Positions 13,201 through 28,181 of a stretch of DNA of 64,000 nt are shown piece after piece. Positions within the stretch are counted from its first letter, which is position 1. Each line of letters begins with the position of its first letter. The notes below the pieces were generated by a model. The model was not told the origin of the DNA and did not search any database. It saw only the letters and a list, made by a program, of their open reading frames with translations. Location of the stretch: contig WTCE01000082.1 of the NCBI GenBank assembly GCA_013138735.1, positions 1-64,000 of the forward strand, in the 5' to 3' direction. Origin of the DNA: Crocinitomix sp. (lineage in GTDB: Bacteria; Bacteroidota; Bacteroidia; Flavobacteriales_D; Crocinitomicaceae). The position numbers and the translations under genes are program-made.

Positions 13201-16200
13201 GCACCAGTAGGGTTGTCAAAGAATTCGTAATCTATTCTTGAATCATGATAAGGCAAAATGGGATTAGCGTAATAAACATTATAATCCCAATTAATGGCAG
13301 CAACTTCTTCAAACATATCAGGACTTCCAAAGTCTAAAATGCGATCGCATTCTTTTACAAAAAAGATATTGTTATAACCGTCGAAATTTGTGACTATTCC
13401 ATCTAAAATAACTGTGCTAGTTGGACAGCCTGAAGTTAAAATATTGGCTATGGTATTGTGGTTAAAGTTGATGTACGTAACGTCGTCAAAATCAATTTGA
13501 CCAATTATATTATTATTGACGAGTATACGGTCCTCTTCAGAACCATCCGCATTATGCAATATAATTCCTTTACGGCCTAAATCATTATTTATTATTTTGA
13601 CAATTCCAGTAATTTCGTTGAAGGTTGCCATTATTTGACCTCCATTAGTACGCCTGTTAAAGTTATTTTCGAAGATCAAATCTTCACAATATTTTAAGGT
13701 AAGCCCGCCTTGCGTTATCGATCCAAAGTCATTGTCTTTAATGACAATATTTCGCTTTTCTCCTATATCATCTCCCTCAATAAAAAGCCTATCGCAGTTC
13801 AGAATATGATTCCCAATAATATTAATATCTGTAAAATCCCCATCCTCGGCAAAAACGATTGCGTCATAACCAGTAATGTCGTCATAGCCAAATATGTTGT
13901 CTAAAAAAGAGAGGTTGGCGCAGGTATCTTCTATTTCAATACTTGCCCAAAAATAAACAGGGTTGTCTTCTGCAAAGGTTAAATTCTGTAGGGTTATATT
14001 CTCAATTTTGTTAAAAGTCCACCTGCTTAGAACCACAACGCTGTCTGGACTGCCTTCTATGGCTTGCACGGTTAAATGCGTTGTATCTAAGCCTGGAATA
14101 TCTGTAAACGTAATCAACTCAGGATAAATTCCATTTTGCAGGTTTAGTGTAACATCACCGCACATACCAGATGTTTTTAAAGCCTCTACTGCCGCAAGCA
14201 CGTTTAAATAATCAGCGTCATATTCACCAACAGTAAAAGTTCCTTTTAGATAAGGCCCTGAAACACTTGTTGATGCCGTGTCATTGGAAGGGTCCATATC
14301 TATATGCCAATTCTCATTGGCTGTCCAAACATCAATATCATAAGCTACTTCAGCATCAAAGGTGAATGGCGATAAATGTAAGTTGAAAACGGTATCTCCA
14401 GCTGGTAAATTTCCCTCCCAATAAAAGGAGTCAACTTCTGCATTTATATCGTAAAACAAATATGCATTCTGCAAAGTGTCAGGTCCGTGGTTTGTGAAAT
14501 TGACAGTTAAACCAACCAAGCTATCGCAAGATAAAGGAGCTAGAATTTCAATTAATTCTAAATCAATGCTGTCAACCCCAATTTTATAAGCTCCTAATGA
14601 GGGAGGGATATCTCTAAATTTGGATTCGAGATCAGTTCCAATGAAATAAATGCCATTTGCTTGACCAAAAAGTGTCACATTTTCCTGAATTCTTAGGTTT
14701 TGATCGGAAAAGAATAGGGGAGCGGTAGAAAATGAGTTCAGCCCAATTCCATCTGCCTGCCAATCCACTAAAGTTAAATGAGAGGGAGAAAACACGCCAC
14801 CACTTAAAAAGATGTCATTATAATCAAAAAATGAACTTATGGCCAGCTCACTCAAAAAGTCACCAGGTGTACTATTTTTAAATATGGTGTTTTCGCAATT
14901 AAAATTCGACACTGCTGTAAAATCAATCAAATCATAGAGGTCGGCATCATCTTCATCCTGCATCAAATGGATGCTGTTAAATTTGAAGTTGGCGTTTTCG
15001 ACGGTATCTAAAGTGATTGTGTGGGCAATCGAATTTACAATGGCATTGTTCCAAATTTCATTCTCAGAAAAAGTACAATTGAGTGCACCAAAGGCTATGC
15101 CGTGTTCAATTTTTATATAATTATTGGAGATTTCCATTTTGTTATTCGAATTTTCATATCGAACTCCATATAATTGTTCGATATAATCAGGGGGCAAAGC
15201 AGTAATTAATTCATTGTGGTTGATTCGGATGCTGTCTGAGTTAAAACAATTGATTCCGCAAATTGTGAAATCTTTCATTAAATTATTTTCAAAAAGACAA
15301 TTCGCGCTGGTTTTTACGTAAATGGAAGCTTTGCCATCAGATATTTCGCAATTTGATATGGTGATATTTTCGGAGGCAGAAATATAAACAACCGCTTCGG
15401 AACCAATTAAAGCATTAAAATCTGGCCCAAAAGAATTATTTCCCTCCAATGTATTCAAAATGCAGTTATCGATTAAAATATTGTCGCTACCAGCGATAAT
15501 GAAAATTTTGTGTGCTGAGCCATCTTTTAAGAAATTCAAATCTTGAAAGATTACGTTTTTACTGGCTCCAACCAAAAACGTATAGGAGTCTGAAGAATTA
15601 ACATTGTATAGATAATTATTGTCAGTTTCGCCTTTAAAAGTAACCGTGTCCGTTTCGGAGGATGTACGATAGTTATCTAAATATCCACCACCATCATAGG
15701 TGCCTTCTCGTACAATAAATTGTACATTACCGCAAGTTCCAAACTCATTTAACGCTGCAACAGCTTCTGTTACTTCATCATAATTTGGATAAATACCGCC
15801 GATATAAATATTCCCTGTTAGGCCTACTTTAAGGTCTGGTAACTCATAAATATTATTAAAGCTATGCGCGTCAATGTCGTCGTTAACGCCAATTGCTTCA
15901 ACGCTAAGATCGATACTTAGGCCTCCTTCAAGATCTATCCATGCAATGGTTTCGTTCAAAACGGATTCACCACTTGAAAAATCCCCAACCCAATCTACAA
16001 TTGAATAGAGTTCGTCATTAACAAGAATTTTGAACCGAATATCGGTAATGGCATCTGTACCTAAATTAAGTAATGAAACTTCAATTGGATTGGAACCTGG
16101 ACAAGCATAATTTGCTCCAGATAGTGAAACTTCCGTCAAAGCTAACTCAACAGGAGAGAGTTCAAATTCGTCTGCACCAATATCTGGAGGAGTATCTCTA

Positions 16201-17486
16201 CTTTCCAGGTCAATATCATCCGAAAGCTCTGCCAAATCGATTCCAGATTGATCTAAGAAATAATCATCAGTAGTATGTGCATTTGGTACCCCAGCAATTA
16301 AGACTGTATGATAGAATGAATTAAGATCTGTTCCCAAAGCCGTTCGAAATTCTTCGAAATCGTAAATGGTAACACCTTCTAATTTAAAATATTCGCCATT
16401 GTAGCAATTGTAATCCGAATCAAAGCCTGTGCATCCTTCAAGGTCAACGCATCCCCATCCAGTAACATTGAAAACATTATTGAAAACATCAAAATCATGG
16501 CAATCATCAAAACGATAACCAGCAGATAGGGCGTAATTAAAGGTGTTGTGGGCGACAAAACCACTATTGATTCCTGTCAGATTCAAACCGAAATCTCCTG
16601 TGTTATTGGCAGACTTAAAGTAGTTATTTACTAAATATAAACTGTCAAGGCCGTCAACGTCATGTCCGGTTATTTTTAATCCGCTACCATCTTCTAAATC
16701 AAGGCTGTTGTAACTGATGTTTACCCAGCCTGATGCACTTTGCAATACAATGGCATCCATTTCGGTTGCGGTATGTATAAAAACATTATTCTCAATGGTG
16801 CAATTATTTGCCTCAGTTAAGTTGATCCCCTTCGCTTTGCCAATATTCAGGAAACTATTCTCCACAATCAATCCGGTTATTGGCGCTATAGTTACTCCCG
16901 AAATTAAAGCGGCAGTTCGGTCGAAGTGGCAGGCATCAAAATGTAAGTCGGTAGAAACGGCTGTACTGTGCAATCTAATTAGTGCATTATCAGCTTCAGA
17001 CCAACCATTATATAATCCGTCAAAAAATACATTGTAAAAAAGTGTAGATTCAGTGGTGTCTGTAAATCGAATAGATGTCGAATAATCTATTTGATAATTG
17101 GCAAAACTGAGGTTCTTAAATTGAATAAAATCGACCCCATCTAATTTGGCAACATAATTATCTGATGCCCCAAGTGGGTCAAATGAAATGACAACACTAT
17201 CACGGTGCACATCTTCGGACTGAAAAATAATTGGATTCAATTCAGAGGCGCCTTCAATTTCCGGTATTTCAAGTTGTTCCTCATAATCGTCTGATCGAAT
17301 ATTAAAGGTTACTGTTCCAGAGATCCCGAATTCAATTAAATCGTCAACGGCATCATTGATTGTGACATAATCTGGCGCATCTCCGCCAATGGTATATTCT
17401 CCATCTAATTCTTGTCCAAATGCTTGCTGTCCTAATAACAGGACAGCAATTGTTACAAAAATAAATTTTAGATGCTTTTGGATCAT
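10212..17486 (-). CDS. Giant T9SS-secreted protein with four parallel beta-helix modules
   Basis: 2424 aa, one of the largest genes here. Signal peptide MIQKHLKFIFVTIAVLLLGQ ending QQAFGQ. Four homologous modules begin near residues 28, 559, 1077 and 1606. Each opens with a G-x-Y-x-[IV]-G-x-x-x-x-[DN]-Y-x-x-[IV] motif and A-[VL]-x-x-L-x-x-x-G-[IMT]-C/S-G-x-V, has right-handed beta-helix coils rich in N-N-x-F/I, then a D-x-x-P-x-[IL]-GA-[DY] motif and a CARDB-like beta domain. After ~2110 come two copies of a C-x-[GD]-DS...GCDSI repeat, a PKD-like segment and a type A sorting domain (MSIHPNPTTGKTTLTFG ... GMYLLIL ... EKLILD). Likely a surface adhesin or polysaccharide-binding or cleaving protein; no catalytic residues identified. 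Confidence 0.85.
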   Translation of the reverse strand: MIQKHLKFIFVTIAVLLLGQQAFGQELDGEYTIGGDAPDYVTINDAVDDLIEFGISGTVTFNIRSDDYEEQLEIPEIEGASELNPIIFQSEDVHRDSVVISFDPLGASDNYVAKLDGVDFIQFKNLSFANYQIDYSTSIRFTDTTESTLFYNVFFDGLYNGWSEADNALIRLHSTAVSTDLHFDACHFDRTAALISGVTIAPITGLIVENSFLNIGKAKGINLTEANNCTIENNVFIHTATEMDAIVLQSASGWVNISYNSLDLEDGSGLKITGHDVDGLDSLYLVNNYFKSANNTGDFGLNLTGINSGFVAHNTFNYALSAGYRFDDCHDFDVFNNVFNVTGWGCVDLEGCTGFDSDYNCYNGEYFKLEGVTIYDFEEFRTALGTDLNSFYHTVLIAGVPNAHTTDDYFLDQSGIDLAELSDDIDLESRDTPPDIGADEFELSPVELALTEVSLSGANYACPGSNPIEVSLLNLGTDAITDIRFKILVNDELYSIVDWVGDFSSGESVLNETIAWIDLEGGLSIDLSVEAIGVNDDIDAHSFNNIYELPDLKVGLTGNIYIGGIYPNYDEVTEAVAALNEFGTCGNVQFIVREGTYDGGGYLDNYRTSSETDTVTFKGETDNNYLYNVNSSDSYTFLVGASKNVIFQDLNFLKDGSAHKIFIIAGSDNILIDNCILNTLEGNNSFGPDFNALIGSEAVVYISASENITISNCEISDGKASIYVKTSANCLFENNLMKDFTICGINCFNSDSIRINHNELITALPPDYIEQLYGVRYENSNNKMEISNNYIKIEHGIAFGALNCTFSENEIWNNAIVNSIAHTITLDTVENANFKFNSIHLMQDEDDADLYDLIDFTAVSNFNCENTIFKNSTPGDFLSELAISSFFDYNDIFLSGGVFSPSHLTLVDWQADGIGLNSFSTAPLFFSDQNLRIQENVTLFGQANGIYFIGTDLESKFRDIPPSLGAYKIGVDSIDLELIEILAPLSCDSLVGLTVNFTNHGPDTLQNAYLFYDINAEVDSFYWEGNLPAGDTVFNLHLSPFTFDAEVAYDIDVWTANENWHIDMDPSNDTASTSVSGPYLKGTFTVGEYDADYLNVLAAVEALKTSGMCGDVTLNLQNGIYPELITFTDIPGLDTTHLTVQAIEGSPDSVVVLSRWTFNKIENITLQNLTFAEDNPVYFWASIEIEDTCANLSFLDNIFGYDDITGYDAIVFAEDGDFTDINIIGNHILNCDRLFIEGDDIGEKRNIVIKDNDFGSITQGGLTLKYCEDLIFENNFNRRTNGGQIMATFNEITGIVKIINNDLGRKGIILHNADGSEEDRILVNNNIIGQIDFDDVTYINFNHNTIANILTSGCPTSTVILDGIVTNFDGYNNIFFVKECDRILDFGSPDMFEEVAAINWDYNVYYANPILPYHDSRIDYEFFDNPTGADWSLEEWIENTGFDENSVWGDPLFISETNLHLNQDNVYPFLSEITPAEVLDDIDYELRDAVSPVIGADEFLPHPNNAKVVGFNVPTVCDSSKNVWALLVNTGTELLTSATLEWEIADESLPAVAWTGSLATYDTTEVYLGVHIEATNHEIMRAWPTLPNGVVDPFTLFDTSRTEITVKFNGHYTVYGDSADFLNLQSAVDSLERYGICDSVFLNIRSGTYEENIDIGYINGSTDTSWVVIQSEDLDSSLVIMNGEPSSGDFQFGMDSTQYLQIRHLTVLRVSLGGVGNISSIGMRYRSSNIMINNNRFLSAYDTGPYTGIIKISGGSVDYRDSEMNNFDILNNRFETDLATCVWSQGQINTEAEIFTTESICIKDNIFTTYNYLDFGEGEEPIVDFGNIKNLEISNNLMKSDRGRAIIGNGYSDTLLITNNSIYNNQFWETIYLEQGLLEVDNQYMKIVNNEFAEYDNSGRSIVIRDATGGLIANNSFRTNSEESDAFILNITSSSTDFKIINNQFIVEDDGICFSSTDSNYFDYNNYFCWGDIGTNGGFALEDIAASQTLLGLDSNSVFGNPEYLNDSTLISTFFVNVDKGANLESVVGDILGNERGVLYDIGAYEIDDFDNNISLLEITAEPNFCYDSLSIFMTFKNSGIVTINDFDIALSGAGVAALSETWSGTLASLEVDSNYFVFTTPILDLPCEYIITLSNPNGETDSYIDDNSLTETYEYVFPVHIVPIEICYGDSILIIDNYEDEDGLYRDTLTSIDGCDSIVGYDLDVNTLITTDVEIGICDSDSILIDGIYEHDAGDYTDALTSIEGCDSILYITLEVFELAAFFDDLDDPLLCIGEESVELNGFPSGGVFSGTGVTGSDFDPAISGEGTFTVYYTYSEDGCSATDSSIIQVVDCLSLNESNIKNMSIHPNPTTGKTTLTFGTALSGDYLLIVRNSAGKIIFQDDQLTGETYLIDLGLFESGMYLLILYERTSKKEVYHEKLILD

Positions 17487-17969: not shown

Positions 17970-19277
17970 ATGTCTGTATATACTAAATCAGAACAACTTC
18001 TCGAAAGGAGAAAAAATACAGTGGCAAATGGCGTTGGTGTTTTCAATACCGCTACTGTTCAAGACGCTAAAGGAGCGACAATTATTGATGTTGACGGCAA
18101 TGAATTGATTGATTTTGCTGGAGGAATTGGCGTTGTAAACGCAGGTCATTGTCCAGAACCGGTTGTGAAAGCCATTCAGGAACAAGCCGCAAAGTACATT
18201 CACACCAGCTTTAATGTTGTGACGTATGAGCCGTATATCGCCTTATGTGAAAAATTAGCAGAGATTTTGCCGCATGGTGAAAAAACAAAGTCAATGCTTG
18301 TGAGCACAGGTGCTGAAGCGGTTGAAAATGCGATTAAAATCGCGAGACAAGCTACGGGGAAACAAGCTGTTTTGTGTTATACAGGTGCTTATCATGGAAG
18401 AACAATGATGGCCATGACGTTGACTAGCAAGATTGATTATAAAATTGGTTGTGGTCCTTTTTCTCCAGAGGTGTATCGTCTTCCTTTTCCAAATTTTTAT
18501 CGTTATGGGATGGGTAGAGATATGGATGAATTCGTAGATTGGGAATTAAAACGCTTACGCGAAAGTGGGCGTAATTTGGTTGACCCAAATAGTCTTGCGG
18601 CTATAATCATTGAACCTGTTCAAGGTGAAGGCGGATTTAATCCAACCCCAAAAAAATACATGGAGGGCTTGCGCGATTTTTGTGATGAATATGGTATTAT
18701 GCTTATTGTGGATGAAGTACAAAGTGGATTCGCAAGAACGGGTAAATGGTCAAGTTGGCAACATTACGATATTGTACCAGATATTAGTACATATGCCAAA
18801 TCAATGGGTTCTGGAATGCCAATAGCAGCAGTTGTTGGAAAAGCAGATATAATGGATGCCGCTGCAGCTGGAACTATTGGAGGAACCTATATTGGTAGCC
18901 CATTGAGTTGTGTTGCATCATTGGCAACCATTAAATATATGGAGGATATTGATCTCAATTCAAGAGGGACAGAAGTTGGAAATATTATTCGTGATCGCTT
19001 CCTTAAAATGCAAGCTAATCATCCCGGAATTGGAGATATTAGAGGCATTGGAGCAATGATTGGCGTTGAATTTGTTAAAAATGGTGATCCAAGACAGCCT
19101 AATACCGAATTATGCTCAGCAATTGTGAAAAATTGTTCTAAAAAAGGATTGATCCTCTTAAGTGCTGGGACTTATAAAAATGTAATTCGGGTTTTATGCC
19201 CACTTGTAATTACAGACGAGCTGTTGAATCAAGGTTTAGATATTATTGAAGAAGAAATCAAAACATTAACGAAATAA
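17970..19277 (+). CDS. Class III (GabT-like) omega-aminotransferase
   Basis: 435 aa, typical of 4-aminobutyrate aminotransferases. Visible motifs: STGAEAVENAIKIAR (phosphate cup), YHGRT, IIEPVQGEGGFNPTP, IVDEVQSGFARTGKW (Asp binding the pyridine N) and TYAKSMGSGMPIAAVVG with PLP lysine K277. The reaction moves an amino group from an omega-amine (GABA, putrescine or a protected diamine) to 2-oxoglutarate, giving an aldehyde. It is the first of six genes on the plus strand with gaps of 4, 12, 3, 10 and 63 bp, and the last gene is an aldehyde dehydrogenase that would consume its product. GABA specificity is assumed from similarity; the other genes make a diamine derivative equally possible. Confidence 0.85.
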   Translation: MSVYTKSEQLLERRKNTVANGVGVFNTATVQDAKGATIIDVDGNELIDFAGGIGVVNAGHCPEPVVKAIQEQAAKYIHTSFNVVTYEPYIALCEKLAEILPHGEKTKSMLVSTGAEAVENAIKIARQATGKQAVLCYTGAYHGRTMMAMTLTSKIDYKIGCGPFSPEVYRLPFPNFYRYGMGRDMDEFVDWELKRLRESGRNLVDPNSLAAIIIEPVQGEGGFNPTPKKYMEGLRDFCDEYGIMLIVDEVQSGFARTGKWSSWQHYDIVPDISTYAKSMGSGMPIAAVVGKADIMDAAAAGTIGGTYIGSPLSCVASLATIKYMEDIDLNSRGTEVGNIIRDRFLKMQANHPGIGDIRGIGAMIGVEFVKNGDPRQPNTELCSAIVKNCSKKGLILLSAGTYKNVIRVLCPLVITDELLNQGLDIIEEEIKTLTK

Positions 19278-19281
19278 ATAT

Positions 19282-20220
19282 ATGAAGCCATTTGCAATTG
19301 CAGGAATACAAATGAAAATCTCGGCTGTTGTGCCGAACATTAAGCTCATGAAATTGAAGCTGGATATTACTATGAACCTTTACCCATGGGTAGAGATGGT
19401 AGTGTTTAGTGAATTGTGTGCCTACGGCCCTCTAACTTATGCCGCACAAGAACTACCTTGCGACTTTGAAAAAGAAATGCAGGAGGCGGCAAAAAAACAT
19501 AAAGTTTGGATCATACCAGGTTCTGTTTTCGAAAAAAGAGATGGCAAGATATTCAATACGGCTAGTGTCATTAATCCCCAAGGAGAAGTGATTAAACGCT
19601 ATAGTAAAATGTTTCCTTTTTATCCTTATGAGGCTGGAGTTACGCCTGGCCATGATTTTTGTACATTTGATGTTCCTGGTGTAGCACGCTTTGGTTTATC
19701 AATCTGCTATGATATGTGGTTTCCAGAAACCATAAGAACACTGGCTGTAATGGGAGCAGAAGTTATTCTGCACCCAACTATGACAGGGACAATTGATCGC
19801 GATATTGAACTTTCAATTTCTCGAGCAATGGCAGCAGTAAACCAATGTTATTTCTTTGATGTGAACGGATTAGATACCGGCGGAAGTGGGCGATCTATTG
19901 TTTGTGGTCCTGATGGAAGAGTGCTACATCAAGCAGGAGAAGCAGAAGAGATTTTTCCGATAGAATTGGATATCGAACGGGTAAGAAGAAGTCGCGAATT
20001 AGGAGTGTTGCGTTTAGGTCAACCGTTGAAGAGTTTTAGAGATCATTTAGGTGATTTTTCAATCTATCATCCAGATGCAAAACTTCCTTATTTGGAATCT
20101 CTCGGATCATTAATTAAACCAGCTCGATTAGACACATTGGCGGAGCTTAAGATAGAAGAAGAAAAACTCCACACTCCTTCTCCGGCTTTTCCAACTACAT
20201 TTAAGGGTGGCGAATTATAA
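19282..20220 (+). CDS. Carbon-nitrogen hydrolase (nitrilase superfamily amidase)
   Basis: 312 aa. The Glu-Lys-Cys triad of the nitrilase superfamily is in place: E44 (MVVFSELCAYGP), K109 (RYSKMFPFYPYE) and C142 (LSICYDMWFPET). The third motif, AVMGAEVILHPT, follows. Enzymes with this set split amides with ammonia or amine release; closest in feel are aliphatic amidases and formamidases, but N-carbamoylputrescine amidohydrolase and omega-amidase belong to the same superfamily. The start is 4 bp after the aminotransferase stop, so translation may be coupled. In the operon it would hydrolyse the amide of a protected intermediate. The substrate is inferred only from neighbours. Confidence 0.85.
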   Translation: MKPFAIAGIQMKISAVVPNIKLMKLKLDITMNLYPWVEMVVFSELCAYGPLTYAAQELPCDFEKEMQEAAKKHKVWIIPGSVFEKRDGKIFNTASVINPQGEVIKRYSKMFPFYPYEAGVTPGHDFCTFDVPGVARFGLSICYDMWFPETIRTLAVMGAEVILHPTMTGTIDRDIELSISRAMAAVNQCYFFDVNGLDTGGSGRSIVCGPDGRVLHQAGEAEEIFPIELDIERVRRSRELGVLRLGQPLKSFRDHLGDFSIYHPDAKLPYLESLGSLIKPARLDTLAELKIEEEKLHTPSPAFPTTFKGGEL

Positions 20221-20232
20221 TAAAAATCAATT

Positions 20233-20637
20233 ATGGGATCAAATACAAGCAAAAAAAGAAAGCAAACCAATTTGAAGGATTTTGTTAGTTGGTTTGAAAT
20301 TCCAGCAATTAATATTGAACAAGCGGTGCGTTTTTACAATCATATTTATTCAATTGATATGGAAACTTATGCCAGTAACCAACATACCATGGCCATTTTT
20401 CCGGCTAATGGTGGAATTGGAGGAGCGATTGTTGCAGGCCCAGGTTCTGTACCAAACGAAAACGGACCATTAGTTTACCTAAACGGTGGTGCTGATCTGA
20501 ATAATGTTCTCAATAAAGTTGAGGATGCTGGTGGACGAGTCATTATGCAAAAAACGTTAATTAACGAAAATGATGGTTATTTTGGTATTTTCATTGATTC
20601 TGAAGGAAATAAACTAGCTATTCATTCAAAAACATAA
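20233..20637 (+). CDS. VOC-superfamily (glyoxalase-like) protein
   Basis: 134 aa. The fold signature is a beta-alpha-beta-beta-beta pair: WFEIPAINIEQAVRFYNHIY at the N-terminus and VEDAGGRVIMQKTLI ... GYFGIFIDSEGNKLAIH at the C-terminus. This is the common small VOC type with the E/H-type metal ligands partly present (E at about residue 18, the C-terminal metal ligand uncertain), similar to YdeN/PhnB-like cytosolic proteins. No defined reaction for this subtype. It lies between the amidase and the decarboxylase with 12 and 3 bp gaps, so it is part of the operon. It might handle a reactive aldehyde or serve as a binding protein. Confidence 0.75.
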   Translation: MGSNTSKKRKQTNLKDFVSWFEIPAINIEQAVRFYNHIYSIDMETYASNQHTMAIFPANGGIGGAIVAGPGSVPNENGPLVYLNGGADLNNVLNKVEDAGGRVIMQKTLINENDGYFGIFIDSEGNKLAIHSKT

Positions 20638-20640
20638 AGT

Positions 20641-23394
20641 GTGCCAGTAAAAAAGCAAATTAGTACTCCGTATTATAACATTGGTCAACTCAGGGTTGAT
20701 TATTGGAATGAATTGAAAGATCGAACAGGTGAATTATCGCGATCAGATAAAGGGACTTCAGTAGAAAAAAACTGTATTCATTCAATCAATAATCTCCTAC
20801 AAGATTTGGAAAGTGTGGAGTGCTTTTTCGCTTTTCCAGGCATATCTCGTTTGGCAAAACTGAAAAAGGCATTAGATAGAGATGAATTTACAGCATTAGC
20901 TAATTGCACGGCTGATACCACGCGCGAATTAGTGAGCGATACTTATCGCAGTCATCCCGATTTTTTGGAAGAGGATGTGAATAGTATGGAGTTGGTTGAG
21001 GAGCAAGAGCGAAAAGATAGTGTACGCAAAAATTATTTTGAAGTGCTTTTTGTTGAAGACATGTCTGATCATGAAGAACGTCATTTGAAACGGAAAATTA
21101 GTGAAATTAGAGAGCCCAATGAACAGTTCACCTATGGTATCGTGGTTCAACGATCAGTACAGGATGCTTTAATAGCACTTTCATTTAATCACAATATTCA
21201 AGCTGTTATCATTCGCTATGCGCCGCCGTATCGGTCAAATGCAATTTCTCCATTAATAGAGCCTTACGTAGAGGATTTATTAAATTTAGATTTAACAGAA
21301 CAGCCAGACAAATTTTTAGGACCGATATTAGGCCGATTAGCGCATGAATTTAGACCAGAATTGGATACTTATTATGTAACTGATACAGCGCTTTCTGATT
21401 TAAAGGATAGTACAATAAAATCCTTTAAACGAATTTTTTACCGAAGCGAAGATTTGCAAGAAATACACCTCACTATTATGCGTGGAATTTCTGAACGATA
21501 TGAAACACCATTTTTCTCGGCATTAAAAGATTATAGTAAAAAACCAACTGGCGTCTTTCATGCTATGCCAATTTCAAGAGGTAACTCTGTATTCAAGTCA
21601 AGATGGATTAATGATTTTGGTGAATTTTACGGGCGAAACATGTTTCTTGCCGAAACTTCTGCCACAACTGGTGGATTGGATTCCTTGCTGCAGCCAACAG
21701 GGCCGCTTAAAAAAGCACAGGAAATGGCACGTGATGCCTATGGATCACAACATACTTTTTTTGTAACAAACGGTACATCAACTTCAAACAAAATAGTAAT
21801 GCAAGCCTTGGTAAAACCTGGCGACGTTGTGTTAATTGACCGTGACTGTCATAAATCGCATCATTACGGTATTGTCTTGTCGGGTGCTTATCCGGTTTAC
21901 TTGGATTCTTACCCGATTGAAAAATACTCAATGTATGGTGCAGTGCCAATTGAACAAATTAAGGAAAAACTAATCGATTTAAAGACAGCAGGAAGATTAG
22001 ATAAAGTTAAAATGTTGCTCCTTACCAACTGTACCTTTGACGGAATGGTTTATAACGTTGAGCGCGTCATGCAAGAGGTTTTAGCCATTAAACCAGACAT
22101 GGTTTTCTTGTGGGATGAGGCTTGGTTTGCCTTTGCAGGATTCACTTATACGTATAAGCAACGAACTGGAATGTTTTGCGCTAAAAAACTATTAGAACGC
22201 TATCAAAGTGATGCTTATCGAGCAGAATATGAGAAACATATCAAGGCATTAAAGGCGAATGAAATATCAACTTTACCTGATCCCGATTTGGTGAGAATTC
22301 GCGTTTATTCAACGCAAAGCACGCATAAAACATTGAGTAGTTTCAGACAAGGTTCTATGATTCATATTTTTGATGAAGACTTTCGTAGAAAAAGTGAAAG
22401 CACCTTCCTTGAAGCCTATATGACGCATACATCAACCTCTCCAAATTACCAAATGTTAGCTTCATTGGATGTGGGACGAAGACAAGTGCAATTTGAAGGC
22501 TTTGAATTGGTTGAAAAAAGTATTGAGTTGGCAATGATTTTACGCGCCAAGATAAATGATAACCCACAATTGAATAAATATTTTGACGTGCTAACGGTGC
22601 ACGATTTTATCCCAGATGAATATCGCGAAACGGGCTTGGCAGAATACTATGACAAAAAAGAGGGGTGGAATCGGATGGATGACGCTTGGGAAAAAGATGA
22701 GTTTGTACTTGATCCAACAAAAATTACCTTGCACATTGGTCGTACCGGAATAGATGGGGATATGTTTAAGAATAAATTTTTAATGGATAAATTCAACATC
22801 CAAATCAATAAAACGTCTCGTAATTCTGTTCTTTTCATGACTAACATAGGAACAACACGAGGAAGTATTACTTATTTGACCAATGCGTTACTCCAAATTG
22901 CAGACGAGTTGGATGAAAAGTTAAAATCGTTGAATCAACACGAAACTGAAATTCATAAAAAACGAATTCATTCATTAACTAAAGATGTGCCACCATTGCC
23001 AGACTTTAGTCATTTCCATCATTCATTTCAAGCAGTTCCAGGTGTGCCCGGGGGAGATATGCGCGAAGCTTATTTCTTGGCTTATAATGAGGATAATTAT
23101 GAATACATTCCGCTATTGGATTGCCATAAAGTAATGAAAAAGGGGAAAGTATTGGTTGCCTCATCCTTTGTGATTCCTTATCCACCAGGATTTCCAGTTC
23201 TTGTGCCAGGTCAAGTTGTGAGTAAAGAAATTATTGCCTTTATGCTCGCTCTTGATGTTTCCGAAATTCATGGATACAGATCAGATCTTGGATTGCGCGT
23301 TTTTAAAGAAAGCGTATTGGATCGTCAAAAAACAATGACCTCAATGGGAGCTATGAGCGCTGGAGCAAAAAAAATAGACTTAAATAAAAATTAA
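20641..23394 (+). CDS. Orn/Lys/Arg-type PLP decarboxylase, long form
   Basis: 917 aa from a GTG 3 bp after the previous stop. Residues ~1-310 are an N-terminal region whose part around FEVLFVEDMSDHEERHLKRK and ALIALSFNHNIQAVIIR resembles the receiver-like wing domain of AdiA/CadA decarboxylases. The PLP domain follows: TNGTSTSNKIV, DRDCHKSHHYG with H404 stacking on PLP, FLWDEAWFAFAGF with D492, and STQSTHKTLSSFRQGS with Schiff-base lysine K563. The C-terminal region has VPGGDMREAYF and a PYPPGFPVLVPGQ motif, typical of the family. It is longer than the usual ~715-755 aa. The expected reaction is decarboxylation of a basic amino acid to a diamine or agmatine; lysine, ornithine or arginine cannot be chosen from sequence. 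Confidence 0.85.
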   Translation: MPVKKQISTPYYNIGQLRVDYWNELKDRTGELSRSDKGTSVEKNCIHSINNLLQDLESVECFFAFPGISRLAKLKKALDRDEFTALANCTADTTRELVSDTYRSHPDFLEEDVNSMELVEEQERKDSVRKNYFEVLFVEDMSDHEERHLKRKISEIREPNEQFTYGIVVQRSVQDALIALSFNHNIQAVIIRYAPPYRSNAISPLIEPYVEDLLNLDLTEQPDKFLGPILGRLAHEFRPELDTYYVTDTALSDLKDSTIKSFKRIFYRSEDLQEIHLTIMRGISERYETPFFSALKDYSKKPTGVFHAMPISRGNSVFKSRWINDFGEFYGRNMFLAETSATTGGLDSLLQPTGPLKKAQEMARDAYGSQHTFFVTNGTSTSNKIVMQALVKPGDVVLIDRDCHKSHHYGIVLSGAYPVYLDSYPIEKYSMYGAVPIEQIKEKLIDLKTAGRLDKVKMLLLTNCTFDGMVYNVERVMQEVLAIKPDMVFLWDEAWFAFAGFTYTYKQRTGMFCAKKLLERYQSDAYRAEYEKHIKALKANEISTLPDPDLVRIRVYSTQSTHKTLSSFRQGSMIHIFDEDFRRKSESTFLEAYMTHTSTSPNYQMLASLDVGRRQVQFEGFELVEKSIELAMILRAKINDNPQLNKYFDVLTVHDFIPDEYRETGLAEYYDKKEGWNRMDDAWEKDEFVLDPTKITLHIGRTGIDGDMFKNKFLMDKFNIQINKTSRNSVLFMTNIGTTRGSITYLTNALLQIADELDEKLKSLNQHETEIHKKRIHSLTKDVPPLPDFSHFHHSFQAVPGVPGGDMREAYFLAYNEDNYEYIPLLDCHKVMKKGKVLVASSFVIPYPPGFPVLVPGQVVSKEIIAFMLALDVSEIHGYRSDLGLRVFKESVLDRQKTMTSMGAMSAGAKKIDLNKN

Positions 23395-23404
23395 AACCTA
23401 ACAC

Positions 23405-24880
23405 ATGACAAAGAAGAAAAATAAAAAATTTGAATTAAACGGTATCGCTGATATTAGAAGATTTTTCTATAAAAATGAAATGCCGATTTACTTTATTAGT
23501 GCTACAAATTTTAACCTTTTAGGAGCGGATGAGTGGATAAAGGGTTTTAAATATATCAGTTATATTGAATGTTTTGATGGATTGCATCCCAATGTGTTTT
23601 CTCCGCAAGAAGAAATTCCACATGATGAATTCGAAAGCATTGAGGACATCAATAATTACCTTTTACAGCATCCCGAAGTGCAAGCCTATTTAAAAACACG
23701 TTCAAAAGGGAAGAAAGCTGGTAAAGTAATGTTTTTGATGTTTGATGAGAAAACAGAAAAATTAGCTAAAAAAGCTGGATTAGAAGTCATGTTTCCATCC
23801 GCTAAAATGCGGACTTACATGGATAATAAAGTTAATACGAATCGCATTGCTGAAAAAGCAGGTGTAGCTTGTGTTCCATATGTACTTACTCCAGTAAAAA
23901 ATTATGCGCATCTCTGCAAAGTTTCAAAAGAATTGGGAACTGATTTAGTGATTCAAACACCTTATGGTGATTCGGGTCATACAACATTTTTTATTACAAA
24001 TGAAGAAGAATTCCAAAAGTATGAAGCGGAGATTGTAAAGGAGAAGGAAGTTAAAGTAATGAAACGAATCAATTGTAAAGGTTCAGCAGTTGAGGCTTGT
24101 GTAACACGCCACGGAACAATTGTAGCACCTTTAATGACTGAATTGGTTGGTTTTAAAGAAATGACGCCTTACAAAGGTGGTTGGTGTGGAAATGAAATCT
24201 ATCCAGATGCATTTACGCCTTCAATACGCAAGAAAGCGGCAAAATATACGCAGCTATTTGGAAATCAATTGAGAGAAGAAGGTTATAAAGGTTATTTCGA
24301 ATTGGATTTCTTGATTGATCAAGACAATGGAGAAATTTATTTAGGAGAATTAAATCCGCGTGTAACAGGAGCTAGTTCTATTACAAACCATGCTGTTTTT
24401 GCCTTGGCAGATGCGCCTTTATTCATGTTCCACATTTTAGAATGGATGGATGTGGATTATAAATTGAATATAAACGCACTAAACAAACGCTGGGCGAGAC
24501 AAGAAAATATTGATAGTTGGAGTCAATTGATCGTAAAACATACGGCTGATACAGTAGAGTTTGTAACACAAGCACCAAAATCAGGGATTTGGAAAATGTT
24601 TGATAATGGACATATCCAATTTGACCGTATGGATACGCACAGAAGAGCTGTTGAAACTGAAAATGAAGCTTTCTTCCTTCGTATTACAAGTGAAGGTGAT
24701 CACCTTTATGAAGGAGCTGACATGGGGATTATAGTATCTCGTGGAAGAATGATGACAGATGATTTTGAGTTAACCGATCGTGCAAGAAATTGGATTAAAG
24801 GAATTCAGACTAATTACACGTCCCATATCATCCAAGACAAACGTGAAAAAATTGTCTTGTCAGCAAGTTTAATGAAGTAG
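23405..24880 (+). CDS. ATP-grasp ligase (biotin-carboxylase-like fold)
   Basis: 491 aa. The ATP-grasp core is visible: VIQTPYGDSGHTTFFI (glycine-rich loop), VKVMKRINCKGSAVEACV, and FELDFLIDQDNGEIYLGELN followed by PRVTGASSITNH with the metal-binding E...N. Databases would probably call it biotin carboxylase, but there is no biotin carrier or carboxyltransferase nearby and the N-terminal ~130 residues differ. ATP-grasp enzymes join a carboxylate to an amine through an acyl phosphate, so the natural inference is an amide bond between a carboxylate donor and an amine made by the decarboxylase. It starts 10 bp after that gene. Family clear, reaction inferred. Confidence 0.8.
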   Translation: MTKKKNKKFELNGIADIRRFFYKNEMPIYFISATNFNLLGADEWIKGFKYISYIECFDGLHPNVFSPQEEIPHDEFESIEDINNYLLQHPEVQAYLKTRSKGKKAGKVMFLMFDEKTEKLAKKAGLEVMFPSAKMRTYMDNKVNTNRIAEKAGVACVPYVLTPVKNYAHLCKVSKELGTDLVIQTPYGDSGHTTFFITNEEEFQKYEAEIVKEKEVKVMKRINCKGSAVEACVTRHGTIVAPLMTELVGFKEMTPYKGGWCGNEIYPDAFTPSIRKKAAKYTQLFGNQLREEGYKGYFELDFLIDQDNGEIYLGELNPRVTGASSITNHAVFALADAPLFMFHILEWMDVDYKLNINALNKRWARQENIDSWSQLIVKHTADTVEFVTQAPKSGIWKMFDNGHIQFDRMDTHRRAVETENEAFFLRITSEGDHLYEGADMGIIVSRGRMMTDDFELTDRARNWIKGIQTNYTSHIIQDKREKIVLSASLMK

Positions 24881-24943
24881 TTTAAACGGGGGGAATAATA
24901 AAAAAAAGATGTGCTGCTCATAAGGGTAGCCTTAAAATATCAT

Positions 24944-26299
24944 ATGGAATTTAAAAGTATCAATCCTTATAACGGAGAAGAAGTTGGGAACTATTCGGGC
25001 ATTAGTACTGCTGAATTAGATTCTAAATTAGCATTGGCAAATAGCAGTTTTCAAACTTGGAAGAAAGTGCCATTAGAGGAGCGCGCGCAACTCATGATAA
25101 AAGCAGGTCAAGTATTGCGTGACAATGTGGAGGAATATGCCAACATGATTACGCTGGAAATGGGGAAACCTTTAAGCGAATCACGCGGTGAGGTAAATAA
25201 ATGTGCCTGGGTTTGTGATTATTATGCTGAAAATGCTGCAGCGTTTCTGAGCAATGAAGTCATTAAAACAGATGCGCAACAAAGTTTTGTGCGGCATGAT
25301 CCTATTGGAGCAGTATTGGCAATTATGCCTTGGAATTATCCTTTTTGGCAAGTGTTTAGATATGCCGCCCCAACTTTACTTTCGGGTAATACAGGATTAT
25401 TGAAACATGCGCCGAATGTTTTTGGCTGTGCCGAATTAATGGAAGAAGTTTTTCTTAAAGCCGGTTTTCCAAAAGGCGTATTTCAAAACCTCATTGTGCA
25501 TCACGACACAACAGAGCATATTATTGCGCATGATGCCGTGCAAGCCGTTACATTAACGGGGAGCGAACGAGCAGGTTCTGCAGTAGCAGCAATTGCAGGT
25601 AAATATATTAAAAAAGCCGTGCTAGAATTGGGCGGAAATAATGCCTTTATTGTTTGGGCAGATGCTGATATTGACGCAGCAGTGAAAATTGCCATAGTGT
25701 CGCGAATGGGGAATTGTGGACAAAGTTGTATTGCTGCAAAACGATTCATTTTGGTAGAAGAAATTTATGATGAGTTTGTTGAAAAATTCACCAATGCTGT
25801 ACGTCAGTTAAATGATGGTAACCCTTTGGAAGACGGTACACAAGTTGGACCAATGGCAAGAAAAGATTTAGCAGATGAATTACACCGTCAAGTGCATGAA
25901 TCAGTTGATCAAGGAGCCGAATTATTATTGGGTGGTCAACAAAGAAACTGCTATCATGAGCCTACCGTTTTGGGTAATGTGACAGCAAATATGCCTGCTT
26001 TTAAAGAAGAAACTTTTGGTCCTTTAGCCGCAATGATAAAAGTGAAAGATGAAGCAGAAGCGTTCCGTCTTTCAGAACAATCGCGCTATGGTTTGGGAGT
26101 AACTGTGTGTACTACTAATACTGAAAAAGCTTTAGAAATGGCTACTGAGGTAAGTGATGGTGCCTACTTTATCAATGAATTAGTAAAGTCGGATCCTAGA
26201 TTACCTTTTGGCGGAACCAAATATTCAGGTTATGGACGTGAACTTTCTAAGGATGGAATGATGGAGTTCGTAAATCGCAAGACGGTTTATTTAAAATAG
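24944..26299 (+). CDS. NAD(P)-dependent aldehyde dehydrogenase, succinate-semialdehyde type (GabD-like)
   Basis: 451 aa from ATG 24944; a GTG at 24911 would add 11 residues without support. Motifs: PWNYPFWQVFR, LTGSERAGSAVA, LELGGNNAFIVW with E228 and GNCGQSCIAAKRF with catalytic C262, and EETFGPLAAMI. Length fits the short succinate-semialdehyde dehydrogenase group. It oxidises the aldehyde formed by the aminotransferase to the acid. The 63-bp gap from the ligase gene carries a GGGGGGAATA box, also found before the aminotransferase gene at the other end of the operon. Succinate semialdehyde is the default substrate; an acylated aminobutyraldehyde is also possible. Confidence 0.85.
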   Translation: MEFKSINPYNGEEVGNYSGISTAELDSKLALANSSFQTWKKVPLEERAQLMIKAGQVLRDNVEEYANMITLEMGKPLSESRGEVNKCAWVCDYYAENAAAFLSNEVIKTDAQQSFVRHDPIGAVLAIMPWNYPFWQVFRYAAPTLLSGNTGLLKHAPNVFGCAELMEEVFLKAGFPKGVFQNLIVHHDTTEHIIAHDAVQAVTLTGSERAGSAVAAIAGKYIKKAVLELGGNNAFIVWADADIDAAVKIAIVSRMGNCGQSCIAAKRFILVEEIYDEFVEKFTNAVRQLNDGNPLEDGTQVGPMARKDLADELHRQVHESVDQGAELLLGGQQRNCYHEPTVLGNVTANMPAFKEETFGPLAAMIKVKDEAEAFRLSEQSRYGLGVTVCTTNTEKALEMATEVSDGAYFINELVKSDPRLPFGGTKYSGYGRELSKDGMMEFVNRKTVYLK

Positions 26300-26390
26300 T
26301 TGCTATTAAGAGTAGTACTTACTTGGCATTCAGATAACAAAAACGCAACGTAACGTGCGGAAATTGCTGATAAATTTTAGCAATACGAAC

Positions 26391-26418
26391 TTGATTCCTG
26401 TAAAAACAGCTATTTTTA
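26391..26418 (+). promoter_or_regulatory. Candidate promoter of the lipoprotein gene
   Basis: TTG at 26391-26393, 17 bp spacer, then TATTTTTA at 26411-26418, one base from the TAnnTTTG consensus. The ATG follows at 26451. Confidence 0.35.
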
Positions 26419-26450
26419 TGATTCGCCCAATCAAGTTAAATACCTGCGTC

Positions 26451-28181
26451 ATGAATCGAGCAATTTCTGTGTGCCTTTTTATTCTTTTATTTGTTAGCTG
26501 TCAAGAGACTTCTAATAATGATGCGATTGAAGATATTCCTGTGACATTACCTGATCCTATAAAGGACGGTCCTTTTGACTTGTCAACAATAGCGCAAAAT
26601 TGGGTGCAATTAACGGTGTTATATGGTGACTCAGTTCTTCTAACAGCTGGAGACGAGGTCTTTACATACCGTTTTGAGCCATTGGCTGGTGGTTGGAAAT
26701 TAGTTGAACAATCGGAGTATGAGGCATCTGACATGTTTGTAAAGTCAGCTGAATTGAAGGATGGCAATCTTTTACTTGATTTAGATGCAAGTGCAATGGG
26801 GTATGATGCTGACGAAGAATTTATCATGAGTCTTCTAAATTATAGTAACGAAGCCACTACAATTGTTTGGCAATGCGCGGACTATGAACCCCGTATTTTT
26901 GTCAACGAAAAAGGAGCGGCCAATTACAAAGAATATAAGAACCATTGCTACGATCATAATGTTTATTGCCCATTGGAAAATCCAAATTTTGGAAAAACGC
27001 AAGATATCCCAAAAGAGCAACTCATTCTACCAGGTAGGAGTGTCGGAAAGATTACTTATTTAACGGATAAAGAGGCGTTGAATTCAATTTTTAAAGGTAA
27101 TCGATTTGAATTTGATGCTTCTAATCGCGATTGGCCTATCACGCATGTTATAAAGGACAATGATGTTGATATCGCAGTTACATGGAACGAAAACAAGCAA
27201 TTGCCTTATTCAATCACTATCTCTGGAGAAAATTCTAACTATAAAACCAAGGAGGGAATTGGTATTGGAAGTAGCATAGAGGATGTAGAAACTGCATTTT
27301 GGTCCTTATTTTATATCAGTGGTTTTGAAATTGATAACGAAATTCAAGGAAAACTTGGGAAATGGAACAATCCTGATCATGACCAAATTTCTTTCAAATT
27401 CAAGATGACAGAGGATTTGCCACAAGAAGAATATGAAGAAATAATGGGGAGTGAGTTGATTGCTTCAAATCATTATTTGCTTCGGAAAGCAGGTTTGGTT
27501 GTTGAGGCAATAACCATATACTTTACCGATCCTCAAAACATTGGCGAAAAAATATATGACAAAAAGGAACTGCTAATTTTTGACAATAAAGCTTTTTATA
27601 AGGGCGAAAAACTATATGACGGAACTGAAGATTTGTTAGCATTGATTGAGGCCGAGTATTCAGAAGATTGTCCCGTCGATTATATGTATGACTATAATCC
27701 TTTATCACTGGTTGGTGATTTTTTGAGTTATGAATTAAATGAATATGGATCAATCGCGTGCGGCTATTCAGGGCAATCGGTCGCGGTGAACACGATTAAT
27801 TATAAAACAAAAAAAGCAGTCGCAATTGATGACGTTTTTACAACTGAGTCAATATTAACTGCTCTAAAAAATGATTCTTGGATTCTAGGTCAGGCAGAGA
27901 TGTATGAAGAGGATTTGGGTTCTTATGATTCAATTGATGAATTGCTCTCCTTTGTAGAAGATTTGCATGTTGATATCGAAAAAGAAAATTTTACGATTAA
28001 AAAGTTTAAAGATGGTGGCAACCTTGTAGAGGTTCAATTAGTTGGTTTTAAAACGAATCCATCAATGCCCATTGAAAAAGTAGTTTTGGGTTTAACATTA
28101 GAGCCATTAGATAAGGATTTAGCTAAACGTTCATCATTTCTATTAGGAACCTTCAATAGTTTTATTTACAAAAAACATTAA
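26451..28181 (+). CDS. Lipoprotein, unknown function
   Basis: 576 aa from ATG 26451. The open frame reaches back to 26355, but the extra 32 residues would bury the signal sequence, so the internal ATG is preferred. MNRAISVCLFILLFVSC is a lipoprotein signal with lipobox FVSC. The mature protein is acidic and mostly beta. It includes a segment with repeated sensor-like pieces (GIGIGSSIEDVETAFW, ITIYFTDPQ) that resemble domains in DUF-type Bacteroidota lipoproteins measuring or binding something outside the membrane. It is followed after 1 bp by the DUF3592-like membrane protein, so the two are probably translated together. No family was named with confidence. Confidence 0.7.
   Translation: MNRAISVCLFILLFVSCQETSNNDAIEDIPVTLPDPIKDGPFDLSTIAQNWVQLTVLYGDSVLLTAGDEVFTYRFEPLAGGWKLVEQSEYEASDMFVKSAELKDGNLLLDLDASAMGYDADEEFIMSLLNYSNEATTIVWQCADYEPRIFVNEKGAANYKEYKNHCYDHNVYCPLENPNFGKTQDIPKEQLILPGRSVGKITYLTDKEALNSIFKGNRFEFDASNRDWPITHVIKDNDVDIAVTWNENKQLPYSITISGENSNYKTKEGIGIGSSIEDVETAFWSLFYISGFEIDNEIQGKLGKWNNPDHDQISFKFKMTEDLPQEEYEEIMGSELIASNHYLLRKAGLVVEAITIYFTDPQNIGEKIYDKKELLIFDNKAFYKGEKLYDGTEDLLALIEAEYSEDCPVDYMYDYNPLSLVGDFLSYELNEYGSIACGYSGQSVAVNTINYKTKKAVAIDDVFTTESILTALKNDSWILGQAEMYEEDLGSYDSIDELLSFVEDLHVDIEKENFTIKKFKDGGNLVEVQLVGFKTNPSMPIEKVVLGLTLEPLDKDLAKRSSFLLGTFNSFIYKKH

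What the first reader, a model, noticed from the sequence alone, without database searches (positions are those of the whole stretch)
17970..26299. Six-gene operon that could be an undescribed amide-protected amine catabolism pathway
Seen: class III aminotransferase, nitrilase-type amidase, VOC protein, PLP basic-amino-acid decarboxylase, ATP-grasp ligase and aldehyde dehydrogenase, all on one strand with gaps of 3-63 bp. Known: in the Puu pathway putrescine is glutamylated by PuuA (glutamine-synthetase fold), oxidised by PuuB (flavin oxidase) and PuuC, deprotected by PuuD (class I amidotransferase-like), then GabT/GabD finish. Inference: here each step has a different family. Decarboxylase makes the diamine, ATP-grasp acylates one amine, the aminotransferase oxidises the free end, the dehydrogenase makes the acid and the C-N hydrolase removes the protecting group. 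I know of no described pathway with this set, but cannot check the literature. Simpler alternative: unlinked GABA shunt genes plus arginine decarboxylation.
Basis: partly seen in the sequence, partly recalled or inferred. Interest (0 to 1): 0.82.

Follow-up and report, generated by a model that had tools for sequence, protein, structure and literature searches.

The report
Conserved GABA-linked amide ligase operon
Six neighbouring bacterial genes form a widely shared, apparently undescribed operon that seems to make the small molecule GABA, tie it into and release it from an amide, and burn it to succinate; its unusual decarboxylase belongs to a family whose true substrate is unknown.

Summary
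The six genes are real, at the stated coordinates, and are a conserved unit. Of 80 relatives kept, 57 had enough flank: the decarboxylase (DC) lies near the ATP-grasp ligase (ATPG) in 57 of 57, aminotransferase (AT) and nitrilase (NIT) in 54 each, VOC in 47, aldehyde dehydrogenase (ALDH) in 45. A seventh gene, a C45 autoproteolytic amidohydrolase, is in 45 of 57 but missing here. AT and ALDH keep GABA-transaminase and succinate-semialdehyde-dehydrogenase substrate residues (58 of 58 and 47 of 47 rows), so the end is GABA to succinate, not a protected aldehyde. DC has Asn723 (71 of 71 rows) where the arginine and lysine decarboxylases compared have Glu, and a sister branch sits beside acidic-amino-acid antiporters: 'basic-amino-acid decarboxylase' is probably wrong. 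ATPG has an amide-ligase-like motif and lacks the biotin-carboxylase base. Best reading: DC makes GABA (probably from glutamate), ATPG conjugates it as an amide, NIT/C45 release it, AT+ALDH oxidise it. The GABA end is well supported, the DC substrate likely, the ligase substrates inferred. Six full-text searches aimed at the gene set found no description.

The parts
17970..19277 (+). AT: class III aminotransferase, GABA:2-oxoglutarate type
   Evidence: PF00202 396 bits; TIGR00700 GABAtrnsam 502.5 bits against cut-off 506.65; aligned to E. coli GabT 1sf2 with Ile50, Arg141, Glu211, Lys268, Thr297, Arg398 kept and Gln79 replaced by Asn; these columns invariant in 58 of 58 rows
19282..20220 (+). 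NIT: nitrilase-superfamily amidohydrolase
   Evidence: PF00795 106.5 bits; best NCBIfam AguB 74.6 bits, far below cut-off 410; Glu44, Lys109, Cys142 in 63, 63 and 62 of 63 rows, one gap
20233..20637 (+). VOC-like small protein, role unknown
   Evidence: no Pfam or NCBIfam match; in 47 of 57 relatives with full flanks, one of them (L100) doubtful; no tblastn match in the ten Pseudomonadota loci
20641..23394 (+). DC: PLP decarboxylase of the Orn/Lys/Arg fold, Rv2531c-type, substrate pocket changed
   Evidence: PF01276 263 bits; PDB 9n0n/9n0o 808 bits; PLP Lys563 and Asp492 kept, canonical Glu replaced by Asn723, plus Arg727, 71 of 71 rows; only copy found in the assembly
23405..24880 (+). ATPG: ATP-grasp carboxylate-amine ligase (class inferred), annotated in its family as 'biotin carboxylase'
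   Evidence: NF005096 799.9 bits over cut-off 684; AlphaFold2 model pLDDT 86.9; PylC Z 23.1 (rmsd 4.3, 321 aligned) and biotin carboxylase Z 23.0 (4.0, 384) tied; E315-x-N317-x-R319-x-x-G322-A323
24944..26299 (+). ALDH: succinate-semialdehyde dehydrogenase, Sad/GabD1 type (ORF open from GTG 24911; relative L018 starts at the equivalent of this ATG)
   Evidence: PRK09406 507.6 bits (below its cut-off 730), Sad PDB 8qms 426 bits; Trp146, Arg150, Cys273, Ser427 invariant in 47 of 47 rows of 50% identity or more

Best explanation
A conserved GABA-centred amide operon. DC, an Orn/Lys/Arg-fold enzyme re-tooled for a non-basic substrate, decarboxylates glutamate (or a close relative) to GABA [inferred from the pocket and neighbours]. 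ATPG joins GABA, or another omega-amino acid, through an ATP-driven amide bond to a partner that I cannot name [ligase class from motif and fold; substrates inferred]. NIT, accompanied or occasionally replaced in relatives by the Ntn-type C45 enzyme, reopens that amide [classes shown, substrates inferred]. AT turns GABA into succinate semialdehyde and ALDH oxidises it to succinate [strongly supported by substrate-binding residues, not assayed]. In Shinella-type operons an arginine-to-GABA route stands where DC would be while ATPG, C45 and NIT stay, which is why GABA is the most economical common node. Separate estimates: GABA/SSA end 0.8; DC not a basic-amino-acid decarboxylase 0.7; ATPG an amide ligase and not a biotin carboxylase 0.85; the whole scheme about 0.35.
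For: Cluster conservation. AT and ALDH residues. DC: profile alignment puts Asn where one arginine and two lysine decarboxylases have Glu, in 71 of 71 rows and 14 of 14 of a wider set that includes three AspT-linked members; 4 of 6 loci opened from the DC search of plasmids lie beside aspT, and the six AspT proteins of those four loci all pass the AspT equivalog cut-off. ATPG: E-x-N-x-R-x-x-G motif and Ala323 where biotin carboxylase has its base Glu296 (BC numbering and motif meaning recalled); PylC, an amide ligase, among the top folds. An intact C45 follows ATPG in 9 of 10 plasmid records opened, even where DC is not nearby (4 of 10: L103, L108, L112, L117); three of those four carry an arginine-to-GABA gene set (L112 is unannotated but 85-87% identical to L103 at DNA level). 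Roseobacter has gabT close by.
Against: No substrate was assayed or docked. AT misses the TIGR00700 cut-off by 4 bits and has Asn for Gln79. 12 of the 45 loci with an ALDH carry a different type (28-32% identity), so SSADH is not universal. In the Shinella-type operon the arginine route looks complete without ATPG/C45, so GABA as ligase substrate there is guilt by association; and the near-identical Roseateles XES5 plasmid has a DC some 550 kb away. Rv2531c shares the Asn but not Arg727. No anti-correlation with PF00282 decarboxylases (the GAD family, which holds other activities too): 15 of 41 ATPG-bearing genomes have one, the window's genome among them, against 110 of 396 overall, so DC does not simply replace GAD. 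AspT near one DC (L115) may belong to the adjacent aspD instead. The role of LdcI Glu526 rests on docking and an earlier proposal.
Confidence: 0.35

Rival explanations
1. Gamma-glutamyl handle: ATPG joins glutamate to an amine, DC decarboxylates the gamma-glutamyl amide to a GABA amide, NIT/C45 releases GABA, AT and ALDH finish. Each gene acts once in a line, as BtrJ/BtrK/BtrG do on an acyl carrier in butirosin biosynthesis (recalled, not looked up).
For: Uses every enzyme in its family role; Asn723 could hold an amide; DC is near ATPG in 57 of 57 Bacteroidota-type loci with full flanks and in 6 of 10 plasmid records opened.
Against: ATPG+C45 occur without a nearby DC in 4 of 10 plasmid records opened. 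The net reaction only does what a plain glutamate decarboxylase does, at the cost of ATP.
Confidence: 0.2
2. One reading: a basic amino acid or diamine is N-acylated by ATPG, decarboxylated, transaminated and oxidised in protected form, then deacylated by NIT/C45 to GABA.
For: Ligase plus two amidohydrolases resemble protect/deprotect logic; loss of the Glu in DC would suit a side chain whose amine is masked; the Shinella operon offers a parallel amino acid to aldehyde to acid route.
Against: AT and ALDH residues fit GABA and SSA; the Shinella route appears to run on arginine, whose guanidino group needs no protection and whose ureohydrolase keeps its metal-site motifs by eye.
Confidence: 0.15
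3. Beta-alanine version: DC makes beta-alanine from aspartate, ATPG makes beta-alanyl amides, C45/NIT hydrolyse them.
For: Aspartate:alanine-type antiporters beside the sister branch of DC; carnosine synthase (ATP-grasp) and insect Tan (C45) handle beta-alanyl amides (recalled).
Against: ALDH is SSADH-type with the SSA residues, and AT scores as GABA transaminase.
Confidence: 0.1
4. Arginine/agmatine catabolism: DC is an arginine decarboxylase and the rest takes agmatine to GABA without agmatinase.
For: Shinella-type loci carry arginine-to-GABA genes; a Roseateles XES5 DC lies within about 10 kb of arginase and an amine-type ABC transporter.
Against: Asn723/Arg727 in place of the proposed cation-binding Glu; no ureohydrolase or deiminase among the recurrent neighbours; no obvious job for ATPG. 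A deletion of the M. tuberculosis relative was not crucial for growth on arginine (heading and passage read in PMC4569260).
Confidence: 0.08
5. ATPG is a true biotin carboxylase, as its family is named, and the cluster carboxylates something.
For: NF005096 is named 'biotin carboxylase' and is passed; the fold matches biotin carboxylases.
Against: No biotin carrier or carboxyltransferase recognised among recurrent neighbours; Ala in 80 and Val in 1 of 81 rows at the position of the base Glu296.
Confidence: 0.03

Closest known systems
GABA shunt (GabT + GabD/Sad)
   Same: AT and ALDH with GABA and SSA substrate residues
   Different: in one operon with an Orn/Lys/Arg-fold decarboxylase, an ATP-grasp ligase and amidohydrolases instead of GAD
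Puu gamma-glutamyl-putrescine pathway (described from memory)
   Same: ATP-dependent amide formation and amide hydrolysis beside GABA transaminase and aldehyde dehydrogenase
   Different: ligase is ATP-grasp and not glutamine-synthetase-like; no flavin oxidase; hydrolases are nitrilase and C45 and not class I amidotransferase-like; no sign that a diamine is involved
Rv2531c-type decarboxylase (PDB 9n0n, 9n0o, 9n0p)
   Same: near full-length homology, 808 bits, Asn at the same pocket position
   Different: Rv2531c lacks Arg727; its activity is reported as not clarified (passage in PMC12910592)
Insect black-ebony-tan beta-alanine shuttle and ATP-grasp carnosine synthase (recalled)
   Same: decarboxylase makes an omega-amino acid, a ligase conjugates it, a C45-class enzyme (Tan) releases it
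   Different: no homology of the whole set was tested; ebony is not ATP-grasp; here GABA is more likely than beta-alanine
Butirosin side-chain enzymes BtrJ/BtrK/BtrG (recalled)
   Same: ATP-grasp ligase plus PLP decarboxylase plus gamma-glutamyl removal around GABA
   Different: BtrK has another PLP fold and works on a carrier protein; homology was not tested

Membership tests
Orn/Lys/Arg decarboxylase (basic-amino-acid) | PLP lysine and cofactor-site Asp | tested here: met
   Lys563 and Asp492 in 71 of 71 rows; PF01276 263 bits
Orn/Lys/Arg decarboxylase (basic-amino-acid) | Glu at the LdcI Glu526 position, put forward as substrate binder (PMC5607190, passages) | tested here: not met
   Asn723 in 71 of 71 rows; the one arginine and two lysine decarboxylases aligned have Glu (ornithine decarboxylases were not shown)
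GABA:2-oxoglutarate transaminase | GabT substrate residues (role recalled) | tested here: met
   all kept except Gln79 to Asn, invariant in 58 of 58 rows
GABA:2-oxoglutarate transaminase | TIGR00700 equivalog cut-off 506.65 bits | tested here: not met
   502.5 bits
Succinate-semialdehyde dehydrogenase | SSA carboxylate residues Trp135, Arg139, Ser419 (PMC7510979, passages) and catalytic Cys | tested here: met
   kept in the window and in 47 of 47 rows of 50% identity or more
Succinate-semialdehyde dehydrogenase | NCBIfam equivalog cut-off PRK09406 | tested here: not met
   507.6 bits against 730
Biotin carboxylase | NF005096 cut-off 684 bits (family named 'biotin carboxylase') | tested here: met
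   799.9 bits
Biotin carboxylase | catalytic base Glu296 (recalled) | tested here: not met
   Ala323 in 80 and Val in 1 of 81 rows, placed by the shared E-x-N-x-R motif
Biotin carboxylase | biotin carrier or carboxyltransferase partner nearby | tested here: not met
   none recognised among recurrent neighbours of 84 loci
ATP-grasp amide ligase (PylC/BacD-like) | ATP-grasp fold with E-x-N-x-R | tested here: met
   shared with carboxylases, so class only
ATP-grasp amide ligase (PylC/BacD-like) | amide-forming activity | not testable with these tools
   needs an assay
Puu pathway | glutamine-synthetase-type ligase and flavin oxidase | tested here: not met
   neither is in the window operon or recognised among recurrent neighbours
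N-carbamoylputrescine amidase AguB | TIGR03381 cut-off 410.25 bits | tested here: not met
   74.6 bits; nitrilase triad itself met
C45 autoproteolytic acyltransferase/hydrolase (relatives' seventh gene) | PF03417/NF040521 match and conserved nucleophile Cys | tested here: met
   PF03417 103-108 bits for three, NF040521 172.7 bits over 85 for one, Cys92 in 62 of 62 rows, the reference counted twice
C45 autoproteolytic acyltransferase/hydrolase (relatives' seventh gene) | present in the window's genome | tested here: not met
   no match by protein (without a positive control); one distant, unlinked PF03417 member at 47.5 bits; assembly 97.5% complete

The most novel reading that the evidence does not exclude
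A bacterial GABA-conjugation cycle with no described counterpart: an Orn/Lys/Arg-fold decarboxylase re-tooled into a glutamate decarboxylase (a new GAD fold class), an ATP-grasp GABA-amide ligase misnamed 'biotin carboxylase', and NIT/C45 hydrolases, in outline like the insect black-ebony-tan shuttle, present in about a tenth of sampled Bacteroidia genomes and on rhizobial and roseobacter plasmids, with an unidentified GABA-amide metabolite at its centre.
Probability: 0.3. Interest if true: 0.76.

Novelty: new variant of a known kind. Interest (0 to 1): 0.56.

Why it matters
The ligase recurs in 41 of 396 sampled Bacteroidia genomes (21 of 198 genera) and on Pseudomonadota plasmids, yet it carries a name that its own residues contradict, and the decarboxylase family, which includes a structurally solved orphan from Mycobacterium tuberculosis, has no known substrate. 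The operon gives that orphan family a metabolic context and a short list of testable substrates, and points to an unidentified amide metabolite.

Tried and rejected
Acyl-diamine reading: weakened by AT/ALDH residues. Protected-ornithine reading of the Shinella operon: I first took its racemase fusion to carry an active arginase, but that domain shows no metal-site motifs by eye while the separate ureohydrolase has them, so the route more likely runs on arginine and needs no protection. GAD replacement tested by co-occurrence: no anti-correlation (overlap of 15 counted by eye from the two lists). Phyllobacterium locus with an aminotransferase, an SSADH-named gene and DC: discounted, because those two lie beside ectoine-use genes. 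Fold search: Foldseek and VIA-align could not separate amide ligase from carboxylase; carnosine synthase and BacD are not in the rows shown, which proves nothing. C45 neighbourhoods without ATPG and NIT relatives in Arthrobacter and Deinococcus gave no clear clue; a NIT relative in Ensifer L120 again lies near a 5-guanidino-2-oxopentanoate decarboxylase. Promoter and terminator scan: near chance level (32 against 39.3, 10 against 7.9). Literature: ten searches ran. Six were aimed at the gene set and gave no listed title or abstract on it; I did not open their listed papers. PRK06524 is in no held paper. Four were aimed elsewhere: Rv2531c (10), lysine decarboxylase residues (64), rhizobial bacteroids (83; passages of PMC8305402 seen, a nodule 'biotin carboxylase' not shown to be this one) and SSADH residues (94). 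Passages of PMC8983666 were seen and not used. The library lacks most subscription papers, so this is not proof of absence.


Full report
Observation. The six ORFs exist at the stated coordinates, on one strand, with gaps of 3-30 bp, 63 bp before ALDH if its likely ATG start at 24944 is used. Pfam and NCBIfam confirm the families of five; the VOC-like protein has no match there. The genome is 6.84 Mb in 188 contigs, the window lying in contig 66; it is probably a member of the Flavobacteriales, since the same-order genomes G038 and G039 have contigs of exactly the lengths of Cryomorpha ignava and 'Flavobacteriales bacterium Ww168' contigs. None of the other 24 genomes sampled in its own family has the ligase over the family cut-off, so the operon is patchy at close range.

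Conservation. They are nearly all Bacteroidota; the records labelled Calditrichaeota, Ignavibacteria, Balneolaceae and Gemmatimonadaceae are MAGs and could be mis-binned. Among 84 loci (80, three fetched from relatives, and the window; L017 and L018 duplicate L032 and L023) only seven families recur widely: ATPG 81, DC 71, NIT 63, ALDH 62, AT 58, C45 58, VOC 56; two groups follow at 9, one of them DC fragments. With tblastn and a flank requirement (57 of 80 kept, 23 dropped), DC is in 57, AT 54, NIT 54, VOC 47 (one, L100, doubtful), C45 45, ALDH 45; the order AT-NIT-VOC-DC-ATPG-C45-ALDH holds in 55 and strand in 55 of 57, the exceptions being L061 and L100. Other genes sit between DC and ATPG in a few loci. 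NIT and C45 together in 43, NIT alone in 11, C45 alone in 2, neither in 1 (L095). The window is of the NIT-alone kind; its genome shows no C45 of this type. A sample of 396 Bacteroidia genomes has ATPG in 41.

The seventh gene. It belongs to PF03417 (103-108 bits in three members) and to NF040521 C45 family autoproteolytic acyltransferase/hydrolase (172.7 bits against 85 in one member); Cys92 is in 62 of 62 rows, the reference counted twice. So most relatives carry one enzyme class able to make, and two able to break, an amide.

The two ends. AT aligns over nearly its whole length with E. coli GabT and keeps Ile50, Arg141, Glu211, Lys268, Thr297 and Arg398; Gln79 is Asn (roles recalled). These columns, Asn included, are invariant in 58 of 58 rows. 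It falls 4 bits short of TIGR00700. ALDH aligns best with E. coli Sad and Synechococcus SSADH and keeps the equivalents of Trp135, Arg139 and Ser419, which lie near the substrate carboxylate in SSADH (PMC7510979, passages); invariant in 47 of 47 rows of at least 50% identity. It is the only such ALDH found in the assembly, the next being 30% identical. Together they read as GABA to succinate semialdehyde to succinate. A caveat: 12 of the 45 loci with an ALDH have a different type (28-32% identity); one member of that type has a lactaldehyde dehydrogenase model as best NCBIfam match, below cut-off.

The decarboxylase. DC is a relative of Mycobacterium tuberculosis Rv2531c over nearly its whole length (PDB 9n0n, 808 bits; the name Rv2531c for this entry from PMC12910592), whose activity is reported there as not clarified (the structure paper itself is not held). 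PLP lysine and aspartate are kept. In the profile alignment the Glu of 'E-K-T/S' in one arginine and two lysine decarboxylases becomes Asn: Asn723 in 71 of 71 rows, with Arg727 in 71 of 71; Rv2531c has the Asn but not the Arg. That Glu is, by the recalled numbering, LdcI Glu526, put forward as substrate-binding by docking and an earlier proposal, not proven (PMC5607190, passages). Of six DC loci opened from the plasmid DC search (38 records), four lie beside aspT (the other two, do not); the six AspT proteins of those four loci pass TIGR03802. A non-basic, probably acidic substrate follows; glutamate is my choice because the operon's own AT and ALDH take GABA and SSA.

The ligase. NF005096 'biotin carboxylase' is passed (799.9 against 684 bits), but the E-x-N-x-R motif is followed by x-x-G-A where biotin carboxylase has its base (numbering recalled), and no carboxylase partner is recognised nearby. 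The AlphaFold2 model (pLDDT 86.9) matches PylC (Z 23.1), biotin carboxylase (23.0), PurK-type (22.5) and PurD-type (21.8) structures about equally, so fold alone does not decide.

Contexts outside Bacteroidota. ATPG matched 32 plasmid records; I opened ten. NIT-DC-ATPG-C45 in Roseobacter, Pseudorhodobacter and Cupriavidus oxalaticus (L101, L109, L105); DC-ATPG-C45 in two Rhizobium leguminosarum plasmids (L104, L111); DC-ATPG with only a C45 remnant, before an IS30 element, in a third (L102), which has another C45 about 21 kb away; NIT-ATPG-C45 without DC in C. necator N-1 (L117); ATPG-C45 inside an arginine operon with divergent NIT in Shinella, Sinorhizobium RAC02 and Roseateles XES5 (L103, L112, L108). 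VOC was found in none of the ten and AT of GabT type in one. In Shinella the operon holds an ornithine-racemase-like fusion, D-amino-acid dehydrogenase, 5-guanidino-2-oxopentanoate decarboxylase (737 bits against 500), an aldehyde dehydrogenase and an agmatinase-family ureohydrolase (212 bits against 174 for TIGR01230), which by established pathways can lead from arginine to GABA. In the four other Pseudomonadota loci without AT or arginine genes (L102, L104, L105, L111) and in L117 nothing names GABA directly. GABA is thus a plausible common node, not a demonstrated one.

Judgement. The gene set is real, conserved and, within the six searches aimed at it, undescribed. Its end is GABA to succinate. 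The middle, an ATP-grasp ligase with NIT and often C45, most likely makes and breaks a GABA (or GABA-precursor) amide, but the partner and the reason are unknown.

Noticed in passing
L018:2299-2997 (-) = L023:11484-12182, L036:14891-15592, L044:11458-12159, L059:11446-12156: A 232-236 aa family with no Pfam match (two members scanned) is in five loci, two of them the same genome; in L018/L023, L044 and L059 it stands between ATPG and ALDH, where C45 otherwise sits.
   Followed up: partly
L111:7246-14471: In Rhizobium leguminosarum Vaf10 the DC-ATPG-C45 genes lie divergent from nifHDKEN, about 1 kb from nifH, followed by a peptide-type ABC transporter and an amidase.
   Followed up: no
L103:15779-17566: Shinella 'alanine racemase' is an ornithine-racemase-like protein fused to an arginase-like domain without the usual metal-binding motifs by eye.
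   Followed up: partly
L108 against L103: The plasmid of 'Roseateles sp. XES5' (flagged UNVERIFIED_ORG) has the same genes in the same order as a Shinella plasmid in this region; the organism name may be wrong.
   Followed up: no
window 10212-17486 (-): A 2424-aa protein with what read like repeated beta-helix segments and a C-terminal tail resembling a type IX secretion sorting signal (by eye).
   Followed up: no
window 26355-28181 (+): 608-aa ORF 55 bp downstream of ALDH on the same strand with no Pfam or NCBIfam match; not among the recurrent neighbours.
   Followed up: no
L036 and L044: One Eudoraea MAG carries two copies of the operon on different scaffolds.
   Followed up: no
L073:8387-9829, L074:8384-9868, L096:6892-8337: In three Cyclobacteriaceae/Flammeovirgaceae MAGs an APC-type amino acid permease (L073 scanned, the others alike in sequence) is inserted between DC and ATPG.
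   Followed up: partly
G354:C78:37415-38845: An ATPG homologue with one in-frame TAG stop.
   Followed up: no
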